Positions 13,624 through 33,129 of a stretch of DNA of 64,000 nt are shown in pieces. The stretch lies in NCBI GenBank assembly GCA_020881835.1, contig CP052876.1, positions 1,364,001 through 1,428,000 of the forward strand. Direction: 5' to 3'. Origin of the DNA: Kineosporiaceae bacterium SCSIO 59966 (GTDB taxonomy: Bacteria; Actinomycetota; Actinomycetes; Actinomycetales; SCSIO-59966). The notes under the pieces were generated by a model. That model ran no database searches. It was not told the DNA's origin and saw only the letters and a list, made by a program, of their open reading frames with translations. Every line of letters begins with the position of its first letter. The stretch's first letter is position 1. Made by a program: the position numbers and the translations under genes.

Positions 13624-15069
13624 ATGCGCCGCGCCAAGATCGTCTGCACGCTGGGCCCTGCCACCTCCAGCCCCGAGCAGGTCCGTGCCCTGGTCGAGGC
13701 CGGGATGGACTTCGCCCGGCTCAACCTCAGCCACGGGGACTACGCCGACCACGAGCGCTCGTACCTCAACGTGCGCCGGGCCAGCGACGAGACGGGCCGG
13801 GCGGTGGGCATCCTGGCCGACCTCCAGGGCCCGAAGATCCGGCTCGGGCGGTTCGCCGACGGCCCGCACGAGCTCGCCGCCGGGGACACCTTCACGATCA
13901 CCACCGAGGACGTCGTCGGCACCCCCGAGGTCGTCTCCACCACCTACCGCGGCCTGTCCGGGGACGTCGCTCCCGGGGACGCCGTCCTCGTCGACGACGG
14001 CCGGGTCGCCCTGCGGGTCACCGCCGTCGACGGGCCGCGCGTCGTCACCGAGGTGGAGGTGCCCGGCCCGGTGTCGAACAACAAGGGCATCAACCTGCCC
14101 GGCGTCGCGGTCAGCGTGCCGGCGCTGTCGGACAAGGACGCGCAGGACCTGCGCTGGGCGCTGCGGCGCGGCGTCGACATGGTCGCGCTGTCCTTCGTCC
14201 GGCGGGCCGAGGACGTCGAGGACGTGCGCCGGATCATGACCGAGGAGGGGGTGTTCGTCCCGGTCCTGGCGAAGATCGAGAAGCCGCAGGCGGTGGACAA
14301 CCTCGCCGAGATCGTCGCTGCCTTCGACGGGATCATGGTCGCCCGCGGTGACCTCGGCGTCGAGCTGCCGCTCGAGCAGGTGCCGCTCGTGCAGAAGCGG
14401 GCCGTCGAGCTCGCCCGGCGCAACGCCAAGCCGGTCATCGTCGCCACCCAGATGCTCGAGTCCATGATCAGCAGCCCACGGCCGACCCGGGCGGAGGCGT
14501 CGGACTGCGCCAACGCCGTGCTCGACGGCGCCGACGCGCTCATGCTGTCGGGGGAGACCAGCGTGGGCCGCTACCCCGTCGAGGCGGTGCGCACGATGGC
14601 CCGCATCATCGAGAACACCGAGGAGCACGGCCTGGAGCGGATCGTGCCGCTGGGCACCCGGCCGCACACCACCGGCGGTGCCGTGACCTGGGCCGCCCGG
14701 GAGGTCGGCGAGCTGCTCGACGTCCGCTACCTGGTGACGTTCACGCAGTCCGGGGACTCCGCACGCCGGATGTCCCGGTTGCGCTCACGGATCCCGGTGC
14801 TGGCGTTCACCCCGGAGCCGGCGGTCCGTTCCCAGCTCGCGCTGACGTGGGGGATCGAGACGTTCCTCGTCCCGCCCGTGCGGCACACCGACGAGATGGT
14901 CCGCCAGGTCGACCAGGCGCTGCTGTCGATCGGCCGGCTCGAGCGCGGGGAGTCCGTCGTCATCGTCGCCGGCTCCCCGCCCGGCGTGCCGGGGTCGACG
15001 AACGCGATGCGGATCCACCGGATGGGCGCGGCCGTAGACGGCGTGGCACCGGCCTACCGGGAGCCGTGA
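13624..15069 (+). CDS. pyk: Pyruvate kinase
   Basis: The last step of glycolysis: phosphoenolpyruvate plus ADP to pyruvate plus ATP. It has 481 residues. The catalytic signature is VLAKIEKPQAV, followed by the metal-binding MVARGDLGVELP; the substrate-binding ATQMLESM is also present, with the regulatory C-terminal domain after about residue 350. ATG 13624 directly follows a leaderless-type promoter. An 18-bp hairpin made from the downstream repeat family (15242-15284) could end the transcript. Confidence 0.97.
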   Translation: MRRAKIVCTLGPATSSPEQVRALVEAGMDFARLNLSHGDYADHERSYLNVRRASDETGRAVGILADLQGPKIRLGRFADGPHELAAGDTFTITTEDVVGTPEVVSTTYRGLSGDVAPGDAVLVDDGRVALRVTAVDGPRVVTEVEVPGPVSNNKGINLPGVAVSVPALSDKDAQDLRWALRRGVDMVALSFVRRAEDVEDVRRIMTEEGVFVPVLAKIEKPQAVDNLAEIVAAFDGIMVARGDLGVELPLEQVPLVQKRAVELARRNAKPVIVATQMLESMISSPRPTRAEASDCANAVLDGADALMLSGETSVGRYPVEAVRTMARIIENTEEHGLERIVPLGTRPHTTGGAVTWAAREVGELLDVRYLVTFTQSGDSARRMSRLRSRIPVLAFTPEPAVRSQLALTWGIETFLVPPVRHTDEMVRQVDQALLSIGRLERGESVVIVAGSPPGVPGSTNAMRIHRMGAAVDGVAPAYREP

Positions 15070-15119
15070 CCGGCGGCTGCCACCACCGTCCCCGTCGTCG
15101 TCCTCACTCCGCCCCTCTC

Positions 15120-15260
15120 GGTGATCATGCAATCCCGCCACCCACCCCCTTGTCGGTGATCATGCAATCCCGCCACCCTGTGACACCCTCTTGTCGGTGA
15201 TCATGCAATCCCGCCACCCTCTGACACCCCCTTGTCGGTGATCATGCAATCCCGCCACCC
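15120..15260 (+). repeat. Forward array of four copies of the TGATCATGCAATCCCGCCAC repeat
   Basis: Full 24-base cores, GG followed by TGATCATGCAATCCCGCCAC and CC, start at 15120, 15155, 15196 and 15237 (spacings 35, 41 and 41). The linkers are also related (CTSTGACACCC followed by CTTGTC), so this is a decaying tandem array. The linkers carry no variable spacers, and there are no cas genes. Confidence 0.93.
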
Positions 15261-15284
15261 CGAGCAGGTGGCGGGCTTGCATGA
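15242..15284 (+). terminator. 18-bp hairpin formed by two opposed repeat cores
   Basis: The fourth forward core (15242-15259) pairs with a degenerate reverse core (15267-15284) over 18 bp with a single mismatch and a 7-base loop. It is the first strong hairpin after pyk and could act as a terminator, although no T-run follows. It also shows that opposed cores can form a REPIN-like structure. Confidence 0.5.
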
Positions 15285-15404
15285 ACGCCTCATGGCCTTG
15301 GTGGGCCACTCCGGAGCATGACAATGCGCCGTAGGCGCCCTGGCAGCTCGCGTCGGGTCATGGGCCTCCACCCACACACAATGCTGCGTTCCGCACAGCT
15401 TTGT

Positions 15405-15435
15405 CGGCGTGTCGCGCCACCAACCCAGCACTCTG
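15405..15435 (-). repeat. 31-base motif shared with 22505-22535
   Basis: Matches the reverse complement of 22505-22535 at 30 of 31 bases (CAGAGTGCTGGGTTGG followed by a GCGCGACACGCCG part). In both places it follows a repeat core in the same relative orientation. It is therefore part of a composite element rather than a chance match. Confidence 0.85.
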
Positions 15436-15490
15436 CGGGTGTGCGCCACCCTGGGTGCGAGGAGCGGTTGGCAACACTGGGCGACCGGGT

Positions 15491-15740
15491 GGGTGGCGGG
15501 ATTGCATGATCACCGAGGGGGTGACAGGGCGTGGGGTGGCCAGCCCAGGGTGGCGGGATTGCATGATCACCGAGGGGGTGACAGGGCGTGGGGTGGCCAG
15601 CCCAGGGTGGCGGGATTGCATGATCACCGAGGGGGTGACAGGGCGCGGGGTGCCCAGCCCAGGGTGGCGGGATTGCATGATCACCGAGGGGTGACAGGGC
15701 GCGGGGTGCCCAGCCCAGGGTGGCGGGATTGCATGATCAC
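15491..15740 (-). repeat. Reverse array of five copies, 57-base tandem unit
   Basis: The core in reverse orientation (GGGTGGCGGGATTGCATGAT onward) starts at 15491, 15548, 15605, 15662 and 15718, with periods 57, 57, 57 and 56. The intervening 33 bases are almost identical between units, differing by small changes such as GTGGGGTGGCC versus GCGGGGTGCCC. The fifth unit ends just after the core. The near identity suggests recent tandem amplification. Confidence 0.95.
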
Positions 15741-15750
15741 GAGCAGGGTT

Positions 15751-15816
15751 TTCTCGTACCAACAGGGGGTTCTCGTACCAACCGGTGGGTGCTCGTACCG
15801 TGGGCGGGCTCGTGCC
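15751..15816. repeat. Short direct repeats CTCGTACC next to tRNA-Leu
   Basis: Units containing CTCGTACC start at 15753, 15772 and 15792, and a variant CTCGTGCC at 15809 runs into the tRNA 3' end (spacings 19, 20 and 17). Two units share the longer TTCTCGTACCAAC. They lie immediately downstream of the tRNA on its own strand. Role unknown. Confidence 0.7.
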
Positions 15817-15896
15817 GGGTGCGGGACTCGAACCCGCATGTCCTCGCGGACGGCGCATTTTGAGTGCGCTGCCTATGCCAATTCGGCTAACCCGGC
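15813..15896 (-). tRNA. tRNA-Leu (anticodon CAA)
   Basis: Reading the minus strand, the acceptor stem GCCGGGT pairs with ACCCGGC, followed by discriminator A. The anticodon stem GCGCA/TGCGC encloses the loop CTCAAAA, giving anticodon CAA, which reads UUG. A long variable arm (CGTCCGCGAGGACA) and the T arm GCGGGTTCGAGTCCCGC are present, as expected for a class II tRNA. Length is 84 bases; CCA is not encoded. Confidence 0.96.
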
Positions 15897-22461: not shown

Positions 22462-22535
22462 GTGATCATGCAATCCCGCCACCCTGCACGACGCGCCGTA
22501 CTCACAGAGTGCTGGGTTGGCGGCGCGACACGCCG
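22462..22535 (+). repeat. Composite intergenic repeat, repeat core plus 31-base motif
   Basis: A core copy at 22462-22484 is followed after 20 bases by the 31-base motif (22505-22535). Further on, AGCCAGCATTCTG resembles a segment at the matching place in the 15.4 kb copy. The order is the same in both loci, so the mobile or amplified unit is probably about 110-140 bases long. Confidence 0.8.
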
Positions 22536-31351: not shown

Positions 31352-31375
31352 GGTGATCATGCAATCCCGCCACCC
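31352..31375 (+). repeat. Intergenic repeat core left of the IS element
   Basis: A complete copy of the core preceded by CCAACCCCCTT. Removing the insertion sequence would bring the next core (33106) to 47 bases downstream, the spacing expected for this repeat's tandem arrays (35-57 bases elsewhere). Confidence 0.92.
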
Positions 31376-31496
31376 CGGGCTGCCCGCGCTCAACCCCTTC
31401 GTAGTAATGGCGTTCTGGGAGGGGGTTCGCATAGAACGTCCTCCTGTGTACACGTCTCGGGCTTGGTGTCCCAACGCGATGAACAGGAGGACGTCC

Positions 31497-32843
31497 ATGG
31501 GTAATGGTACGGGTTTGACTCGGGGTGATCGGCGGCGTAACGAGCGGCGGGCCCGGCTGCGTGCGGCGGTGCCGGCGTCGGCTGCGGTGGTGGGGGTTGA
31601 TCTGGGGGAGGACACCCAGATGGTGGTGGTCACTGACCGGGACTGCCGGGTGCTGGCCCGGCGGGTGTTCAAGGGCAAGGCGTGGGAGCTGGGGCCGGTC
31701 CTGGACTGGGCGGTGCAGCAGGCTGCGCGGGCCGGGTTCACGGCGGTGACGTTGGCGTGTGAGCCGACCGGGTCACGGTGGATGGCGGTGCAGGACGCCG
31801 CCTTCGAGCGGGACCTGCTGGTGGTGTGTGTGCAGCCGCTGGCCGCGGCCCGGGCCCGGGAGGAGGAGGACTACACCCGGGACAAGTCCGACTACAAGGA
31901 TGCGGTGCTGATCGCCCGGTTGGCCGGTGAGCTGCGCTGCTACGTCCCCGAACGTGTGGAGGAGCAGTGGGCGGTGCTGCGGCACCTCGGTCGCCGTCGT
32001 GGTGAGCTGATCACCCGGTCGACCCGGGCGGTGCTGCAGCTGCGTGACCTGCTCGCGGTGGGCTGGCCCACGGTCCTGACGGCGGCGAGCAAGCCGTTCG
32101 AGTCGATGACCTGGCAGGCGTCGGTGGCGGTGGTGCTGGACCGCTGCAACGGTGACCCGGCCCGGCTGCGGCGGATGGGCCTGGCCCGGTTCACCGACGC
32201 GGTGCGCCGTGAGCTGCCTCGTTGGGGTGGGCGCAAGATCCGCCGCCGGATCGTCGAGGGCGTGTTCGCCGCCCTCAACGACACCACCGGCGCGGTGGCC
32301 CGCCAGCGCGCCGGGGCGCTCAAACGCGCCGCCTGGGCGGTGGATGACCTGCGCGCCGCCCGCGCCCAGCAGCAGACCGTCGAGCAGGAGATGCTCACCG
32401 CCGTGGACGCCCTGGGCCTGAGTGACCCGCTGGCCTCGATCCCCGGGCTGTCCCTGCCGGCTGCCGCGCAGATCCTCGCCGAGGCCGGTGACCCGACCCG
32501 CTTCGACAGCGCACGGTCCCTGGTCAAGCACGCCGGGCTGAACCCGGTGGAGAACACCTCGGCCACCTTCCGCGGCCGCACCCGCACCTCCAAACGCGGC
32601 CGCCCCGGGCTGCGGCTGGCCGCCTGGCGTGCCACCTGGACGGTGATCCGGCACAACCCGGTCCTGGCCGCCCGCCACGCCCACCTGACCAGCCGCCAGC
32701 ACAACCGGCTCACCCGCGCACAGGCCCACGTGGCCTGCGCCACGACCCTGCTGCGCTGGATCTACGCCGTCACCACCACCGGGCAGCGCTGGGACCCCCG
32801 GATCGCCGCCGGCCCCACCACCGAGGCCCCCATGGCCGCCTGA
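31497..32843 (+). CDS. IS110-family transposase (DEDD plus serine recombinase)
   Basis: 448 residues. The N-terminal RuvC-like domain has D35 (VVGVDLGED), E89 (LACEPTGSRW) and D132/D135 (DKSDYKDAVLIARL). A coiled region lies at about 265-300. The C-terminal Transposase_20 domain has LASIPGLSLPAAAQILAEAG, KHAGLNPVEN and the serine at about 365 in TSKRGRPGLR. All catalytic residues are present. ATG 31497 is preceded by AGGAGG at 31485-31490. It cuts and rejoins DNA without a long terminal repeat; in this family target and donor are chosen by an RNA from the element's non-coding end. Confidence 0.96.
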   Translation: MGNGTGLTRGDRRRNERRARLRAAVPASAAVVGVDLGEDTQMVVVTDRDCRVLARRVFKGKAWELGPVLDWAVQQAARAGFTAVTLACEPTGSRWMAVQDAAFERDLLVVCVQPLAAARAREEEDYTRDKSDYKDAVLIARLAGELRCYVPERVEEQWAVLRHLGRRRGELITRSTRAVLQLRDLLAVGWPTVLTAASKPFESMTWQASVAVVLDRCNGDPARLRRMGLARFTDAVRRELPRWGGRKIRRRIVEGVFAALNDTTGAVARQRAGALKRAAWAVDDLRAARAQQQTVEQEMLTAVDALGLSDPLASIPGLSLPAAAQILAEAGDPTRFDSARSLVKHAGLNPVENTSATFRGRTRTSKRGRPGLRLAAWRATWTVIRHNPVLAARHAHLTSRQHNRLTRAQAHVACATTLLRWIYAVTTTGQRWDPRIAAGPTTEAPMAA

Positions 32844-32864
32844 CCAGCACACCCGCCGACCCCG

Positions 32865-33020
32865 GCGGGGCGAGCTCGCACCTTCGTAGAGGGGAAACCC
32901 TTCCACCTCGATGATCACCATGAGCAGCCCCGCCAGGCCGCCAGGGAACCTCACAAGCTCGCTTGAACGCTGTTGGGACCCCAAGCCCACTTGCCAGCTA
33001 CGTAGAGACGAGGAACCCGA
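32865..33020 (+). ncRNA. Candidate bridge RNA of the IS110-family element
   Basis: Two loop-like blocks lie in the order known for bridge RNAs. Target block: AAACCCT (32895-32901) resembles left flank AACCCCT (31392-31398), 6 of 7. ATGATCACCA (32911-32920) is the exact complement of right flank TGGTGATCAT (33105-33114). GGGG (32891-32894) and CCCC (32928-32931) could close the block. Donor block: CTTGAACGCT (32962-32971) matches the element's right end CTCTTACGCT (33096-33105) at 7 of 10, including ACGCT. CTACGTAG (32998-33005) matches the complement of CTTCGTAG (31397-31404) at 7 of 8. CTCG/CGAG (32958-32961, 33009-33012) closes it and TTGGG/CCCAA forms an apical hairpin. Ends are estimated. 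Confidence 0.7.
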
Positions 33021-33105
33021 CCCCGGCCACCCCCCCGGCGGGGACCCCACACACCACCAACAAGATCAACACGACCCAAGACCTTGACGTGAAACCTCTT
33101 ACGCT

Positions 33106-33129
33106 GGTGATCATGCAATCCCGCCACCC
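33106..33129 (+). repeat. Intergenic repeat core right of the IS element
   Basis: A complete core directly abutting the right end of the element; its upstream half-unit is at 31381-31398 on the other side. Its first bases are the predicted right target. Confidence 0.9.

What the first reader, a model, noticed from the sequence alone, without database searches (positions are those of the whole stretch)
32865..33020. Putative bridge RNA whose target guide is complementary to the genome's own repeat
Four segments in the non-coding right end of the IS110-family element match the two target flanks and the two element ends, in the order left target, right target, left donor, right donor. The right-target guide ATGATCACCA (32911-32920) is a perfect 10-base complement of the flank. 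The left-target segment matches at 6 of 7, and the donor segments at 7 of 10 and 7 of 8. CTCG/CGAG and GGGG/CCCC close the two loops. Bridge RNAs are known in this family; this element and its programming for a repeat are read here. It sits downstream of the transposase, as in IS1111-type members.
Basis: partly seen in the sequence, partly recalled or inferred. Interest (0 to 1): 0.86.

Follow-up and report, generated by a model that had tools for sequence, protein, structure and literature searches.

The report
Insertion element's RNA guide targets repeats
A small jumping DNA element in this actinobacterium carries a two-loop RNA whose guide letters match a 23-letter sequence repeated hundreds of times in the same genome, and comparison with about 40 relatives shows that guide and landing site change together, so the RNA almost certainly tells the element where to insert.

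Summary
The finding is real. The stretch downstream of the transposase is a bridge RNA (seekRNA) of an IS110-family element that sits in seven copies in this genome, all in the same 336-404-copy repeat. Over 42 related elements the right-target guide matches its own right flank at 4.6 of 5 non-core bases, against 2.2 when guides and flanks are shuffled (0 of 20,000 shuffles as high). The left-target and left-donor guides and the core also covary. A covariance model built without the window finds 32856-33036 at 81 bits.

The left-target guide is CACCTTC-GT (32879-32887). The element does not look IS1111-type: no long subterminal repeats, a 448-aa transposase, IS110-type guide order. A downstream RNA with IS110 order departs from the two published layouts, although IS110 members with a downstream non-coding region had been noted.

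The core is always NT. Its T is the first base of a -10-like box that, with TTGAC in the right end, would make a promoter only in the excised circle.

The parts
31401..33106 (+). Whole insertion element, 1706 bp (counted with one copy of the GT core, at the left)
   Evidence: Five copies 100% identical over 1706 bp, two of 1708 bp; ends set by the core dinucleotide that is equal at both ends in 39 of 39 relatives
31394..31400 (+). Left target, CCCCTTC
   Evidence: Left flank; in all seven copies it ends in TTC or CTC
31401..31402 (+). Core dinucleotide GT, left copy
31402..31407 (+). TAGTAA, the -10-like half of a promoter that exists only in the excised circle; its first T is the core T
   Evidence: TTGAC plus TAnnnA-type hexamer at 17-18 nt across the virtual circle junction in the relatives with both ends; consensus match, no transcription data
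31497..32843 (+). Transposase gene, 448 aa, DEDD_Tnp_IS110 plus Transposase_20
   Evidence: Pfam PF01548 and PF02371; E89, D132, D135 and S355 line up with IS621 in phmmer, D35 conserved among relatives
32856..33036 (+). Bridge RNA region (match to a covariance model built without the window)
   Evidence: 81.2 bits, E 4e-15; the same in all seven copies and nowhere else in the genome; true RNA ends unknown
32867..32871 (+). 5' strand of the stem closing the target loop (GGGGC)
   Evidence: 99% of cells paired, with compensatory changes
32879..32887 (+). Left-target guide CACCTTC-GT (same sense as the left flank plus core)
   Evidence: Positions -1 to -4 match the own flank in 32-34 of 37 elements, core 42 of 42
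32889..32909 (+). Hairpin GAGG...CCTC between the two target guides
   Evidence: Two of four pairs with two-sided changes, 94% of cells paired
32911..32918 (+). Right-target guide ATGATC-AC (reverse complement of core plus right flank)
   Evidence: Own-flank match 4.6 of 5 non-core bases against 2.2 shuffled
32927..32931 (+). 3' strand of the stem closing the target loop (GCCCC)
32967..32972 (+). Left-donor guide ACGCTG (same as the element's right end 33101-33106)
   Evidence: 5.5 of 6 against 4.9 shuffled
32975..32988 (+). Hairpin GGG...CCC between the donor guides
   Evidence: All cells paired, compensatory changes
32998..33001 (+). Right-donor guide CT-AC (complement of core GT plus AG of the left end)
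   Evidence: Core complement matches in 41 of 42 elements: CTAC, CTAG or CTAT for cores GT, CT, AT
33084..33089 (+). TTGACG, the -35-like half of the circle-junction promoter
33107..33108 (+). Core dinucleotide GT, right copy
33107..33129 (+). Target repeat GTGATCATGCAATCCCGCCACCC cut by the element (right target plus core)
   Evidence: 336 exact 19-mers in the genome, 404 of the 21-mer with up to one mismatch, none in 394 other genomes of the class
31353..31375 (+). A second, uncut copy of the same repeat just left of the element

Best explanation
An IS110-family element of 1706 bp whose bridge RNA, encoded downstream of the transposase, has a target loop written for the host genome's own repeat. 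In the excised circle the joined ends would make a promoter (TTGAC from the right end, TAGTAA from the left end) that transcribes transposase and RNA together. [quoted passage not shown] the donor loop pairs ACGCTG and CT-AC with the two joined element ends. Recombination at the shared GT core then inserts the circle at the 5' edge of a repeat in fixed orientation. Shown here: sequence, boundaries, structure and guide-flank covariation. Inferred from IS621 and ISEc11 work: transcription, processing, pairing and recombination.
For: Seven copies, five of them identical, all at the repeat. 42 relatives: right-target guide 4.62 of 5 against 2.24 shuffled, left-target guide 4.19 against 2.86, left-donor guide 5.50 against 4.92, each 0 of 20,000 shuffles; core equal at both ends 39 of 39 and in LTG, RTG, RDG in 42, 41 and 41 of 42. 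With one element per distinct guide the right and left target results hold (4.68 against 1.91, n=22; 3.88 against 2.07, n=16). Leave-window-out model 81 bits. Two-loop structure with 56 two-sided compensatory cells against 16 shuffled; slid controls fall from 98.5% to under 58% paired. All seven insertions have TTC or CTC before the core although only 92 of 336 repeats do, about 1e-4 if sites were picked without regard to the left side. Circle-junction promoter pattern in relatives.
Against: No RNA reads and no activity data. Guide slots and end patterns were found partly by eye and then listed by hand, though each slot is fixed by neighbouring conserved motifs and every listed string was checked to be in its locus. 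The shuffles do not remove all relatedness among elements. The core position of the left-donor guide does not match (TT for GT). A few relatives match poorly on the left (L053, L057, L071).
Confidence: 0.95

Rival explanations
1. The transposase recognises the repeat by itself as protein; the complementarity in the non-coding end is left over from capture of a piece of the repeat.
For: IS3, IS4, IS256 and IS5 elements reach REP sequences without a known guide RNA (PMC1525189).
Against: Guides differ between elements in step with their flanks, including the core in five places; guides sit at fixed places in a conserved two-loop fold.
Confidence: 0.03
2. The repeat is carried by the element: insertion leaves a copy, so the association says nothing about targeting.
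For: A copy of the repeat abuts the right end of every insertion, and an uncut copy lies just left of several.
Against: Hundreds of repeats lie far from any copy of the element (7 copies against 336 exact repeats); relatives in other genomes have other flanks.
Confidence: 0.01
3. The conserved stretch is a structural or regulatory RNA of the element (transcript end, antisense control) and the guide matches are incidental.
For: Antisense and sense small RNAs regulate the transposase of ISPpu9, another REP-targeting IS110 element (PMC8450116, abstract).
Against: Guide-flank covariation has no reason under this view. A regulatory role beside guiding is not excluded.
Confidence: 0.01

Closest known systems
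IS621 bridge RNA (IS110 group; PMC11208160)
   Same: Two internal-loop domains in the order LTG, RTG, LDG, RDG; guides include the core; dinucleotide core; natural targets in an intergenic repeat (REP)
   Different: RNA downstream of the transposase here, upstream in IS621; about 4-5 bases left and 5 right of the core here, 7 left and 2 right in the 11-bp IS621 target; transposase 448 aa against 328 aa in the solved IS621 chain
ISPa11, ISEc11, ISKpn4 seekRNAs (IS1111 family; PMC11187229)
   Same: Non-coding region with the guide RNA downstream of the transposase; ISPa11 also targets a genome repeat (REP)
   Different: Published order there is top-strand match before bottom-strand match; here bottom-strand match first; no long subterminal inverted repeats; transposase 330-350 aa there
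IS110-family members with a downstream non-coding region (noted in PMC11187229, text on Fig. 1b)
   Same: Location of the long non-coding region
   Different: Their guides are not described in the text read here; whether this clade is among them could not be checked because figures are not held
IS110-family elements in REP sequences (ISPpu9, ISPpu10, ISRm19, ISPa11; PMC1525189)
   Same: All copies inside a high-copy intergenic repeat
   Different: Other hosts and another repeat; that study predates guide RNAs

Membership tests
IS110 family (IS110 + IS1111) with bridge RNA | DEDD transposase with Transposase_20 C-terminal domain | tested here: met
   PF01548 E 2e-18 and PF02371 E 3e-22; match to IS621 with E, D, D, S in register
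IS110 family (IS110 + IS1111) with bridge RNA | Non-coding RNA with target and donor loops complementary to flanks and ends | tested here: met
IS110 family (IS110 + IS1111) with bridge RNA | RNA bound to the transposase and needed for recombination | not testable with these tools
   Needs RNA sequencing and an assay
IS110 family (IS110 + IS1111) with bridge RNA | Promoter formed at the circle junction | tested here: inconclusive
   TTGAC and TAGTAA-type boxes at 17-18 nt across the virtual junction in the relatives examined; consensus match only
IS1111 group | Subterminal inverted repeats of 7-17 bp | tested here: not met
   Longest inverted match between ends 8 with one mismatch, shuffled mean 8.0
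IS1111 group | Non-coding region downstream of tnp | tested here: met
   RNA at 32856-33036 after the stop at 32843
IS1111 group | Top-strand guide before bottom-strand guide | tested here: not met
   Bottom-strand (left-target) guide at 32879, top-strand (right-target) guide at 32911; criterion from PMC11187229
IS1111 group | Transposase of 330-350 aa related across its length | tested here: not met
   448 aa; only 83 aa align with IS4321 (334 aa), against 414 aa with an IS117-type protein; the tree has long branches and is weak
IS110 group | Bottom-strand guide before top-strand guide, short or no STIR | tested here: met
IS110 group | Non-coding region upstream of tnp | tested here: not met
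   Downstream here and in the relatives read; the published scheme admits exceptions

The most novel reading that the evidence does not exclude
A third bridge-RNA layout: a mainly actinobacterial IS110 clade with the RNA moved behind the transposase but the IS110 guide order kept, a right-weighted target (about 4-5 + core + 5), and naturally varied cores (AT, GT, CT) held to NT because the core T is the first base of the circle-junction -10 box.
Probability: 0.5. Interest if true: 0.6.

Novelty: new variant of a known kind. Interest (0 to 1): 0.5.

Why it matters
It gives a natural, ready-made set of reprogrammed bridge RNAs: 22 distinct right-target guides and three cores with known sites, in hosts other than Proteobacteria. 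The NT rule for the core is a testable constraint on which cores such recombinases may naturally use, and the downstream-RNA, IS110-order layout is an intermediate for the proposed move of the bridge RNA between element ends. For this genome it explains why seven copies sit harmlessly in a repeat with several hundred landing sites.

Tried and rejected
First boundary choice with core YT or CT next to GGTGATC was dropped: left and right cores disagreed in the AT-core relatives; moving the core to GT (CT, AT) made all of them agree. The segment AAACCCTT (32895-32902) was considered as left-target guide and rejected in favour of CACCTTC-GT, which lies at the place that covaries in relatives. A protein search of genome contigs and viral contigs with the single protein found nothing; an alignment did. 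Rfam has no such family. A tree to place the clade among IS110 and IS1111 is weak because of long branches. A pattern for the central module between repeat arrays was too strict to count it.

Full report
The sequence. The element's DNA finds seven long matches in the genome and more than a hundred short ones, the latter all to the repeat that forms the right flank. Cut at the ends found below, five copies are identical over 1706 bp and two are 1708 bp long; the right flank is GTGATCATGCA(A/G)TCCCGCCACC in all seven, and the left flank ends in TTC or CTC. The gene at 31497-32843 is a DEDD transposase with PF01548 and PF02371; the solved structures it matches are IS621 and, more weakly, ISCro4.

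The repeat. The 19-mer GTGATCATGCAATCCCGCC occurs 336 times, 168 on each strand; the 21-mer with up to one mismatch 404 times, and not once in 394 other genomes of the class. No other genome of the same family is held, so how far the repeat reaches among close relatives is unknown. Only 23 bp are conserved; before them lies a C-rich, variable stretch ending in G or C.

Relatives. One protein query found nothing in genome contigs. A class-wide search gave four other genomes with relatives and an alignment search 64 named loci, nearly all Actinomycetota with one Deinococcota MAG. Behind their transposase stop codons lies the same kind of stretch, and in front of them a recognisable left end.

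Boundaries. Lining up left and right ends shows a dinucleotide that is the same at both ends of each element: AT in 23, GT in 11, CT in 8 of the 42 elements by the right end, with left equal to right in 39 of 39 elements that have both ends. For the window it is GT, so the uncut target is CCCCTTC-GT-GATCATGCAATCCC. Uncut repeats with just this context exist: CTTCGTGATCATGC occurs 48 times and YTCGTGATCATGCAATCCCGCC 92 times.

Guides. The right-target guide, placed by the conserved C(A/C)NG(A/G)GC that follows it, pairs with positions +1 to +5 of the own right flank in 42, 42, 41, 34 and 35 of 42 elements, and not beyond. The left-target guide matches positions -1 to -4 in 33, 33, 34 and 32 of 37, with -5 in 23. 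Shuffling which flank goes with which guide lowers the match from 4.62 to 2.24 of 5 (right) and from 4.19 to 2.86 of 5 (left), with no shuffle of 20,000 as high; with one element per distinct guide it is 4.68 against 1.91 (n=22) and 3.88 against 2.07 (n=16). The left-donor guide gives 5.50 against 4.92 of 6. The core is written correctly in the left-target guide in 42, the right-target guide in 41 and the right-donor guide in 41 of 42 (all). Shuffling does not remove relatedness, but guide changes across 22 distinct sequences, each matching its own flank, are hard to get otherwise. In this genome the left guide also seems to matter: all seven insertions have YTC before the core, against 92 of 336 repeats, a chance near 1e-4.

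Structure. RNAalifold on 31 sequences gives a target loop (stem GGGGC/GCCCC and CYC/GRG, apical GAGG/CCUC) and a donor loop (CUCG/UAGAG, hairpin GGG/CCC) with the four guides in the single-stranded places. Pair counts: 98.5% of cells paired, 56 two-sided compensatory cells against 16 in shuffles; sliding the partners drops pairing to below 58%. A model made from the 30 relatives without the window finds 32856-33036 at 81 bits, E 4e-15, next best 9 bits, and in the genome exactly the seven copies. Rfam has no matching family.

Circle promoter. Joining right end to left end on paper puts TTGAC and a TAGTAA, TAGAAA, TAGGAA or TAATAA-like hexamer at 17-18 nt in the relatives with both ends. The hexamer's first T is the second core base, which is T in all 42. 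That would explain why the core is always NT. This is inference from a consensus; a junction promoter as such is described for the family (PMC11187229), and IS621 was tested with GT, AT and TT cores besides CT (PMC11208160).

Comparison with the known. IS621: same guide order, RNA upstream. IS1111 seekRNAs: RNA downstream, but top-strand match first, long subterminal inverted repeats and a shorter transposase. Here: RNA downstream, bottom-strand match first, no inverted repeat longer than chance, 448 aa, and better full-length similarity to IS117 than to IS4321 (weak). IS110-type members with a downstream non-coding region were already noted as exceptions, so the layout is not unheard of; a description of their guides was not found in the texts read. 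REP-like repeats as landing sites of IS110 elements have been known since 2006 and for IS621 and ISPa11 with guide RNAs.

What is shown and what is not. Shown: the sequence, the boundaries, the fold and the covariation between guides and flanks. Inferred: that the RNA is transcribed and processed, binds the transposase and directs recombination, and that the junction promoter works.

Noticed in passing
window 15121-15258 (+), 15493-15740 (-), 22462-22482 (+); L010, L016-L024, L027, L028: The target repeat comes in inward-facing arrays (+ copies, then - copies) around a further conserved module (CACAGAATGCTGGGTTGGTGGCGCGACACGCC...CAGCATTCTGTG). One such unit folds at -238 kcal/mol, z -14. A BIME-like composite, seen in no other of the 394 class genomes by its repeat; function unknown.
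   Followed up: partly
window 15069-15812: One repeat array pair lies between an ORF that ends at 15069 (+) and a tRNA-Leu gene at 15812-15896 (-), that is, between converging genes.
   Followed up: no
G000 contig C1, seven element copies: All seven copies lie on the + strand of the contig although the repeat is 168 to 168 by strand; chance 1 in 64, cause unknown.
   Followed up: no
L045 and L089: Two places in one Amycolatopsis genome hold near-identical ends and RNA of a relative, with the right flanks alike only for the first about 28 bases.
   Followed up: no
L036, L049-L055, L058-L070 and others: The AT-core relatives keep nearly one left-target guide (GCGGC-AT; L065 GCGTC-AT with the flank changed alike) while their right-target guides vary, as if the right guide were the freely changing one.
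   Followed up: partly
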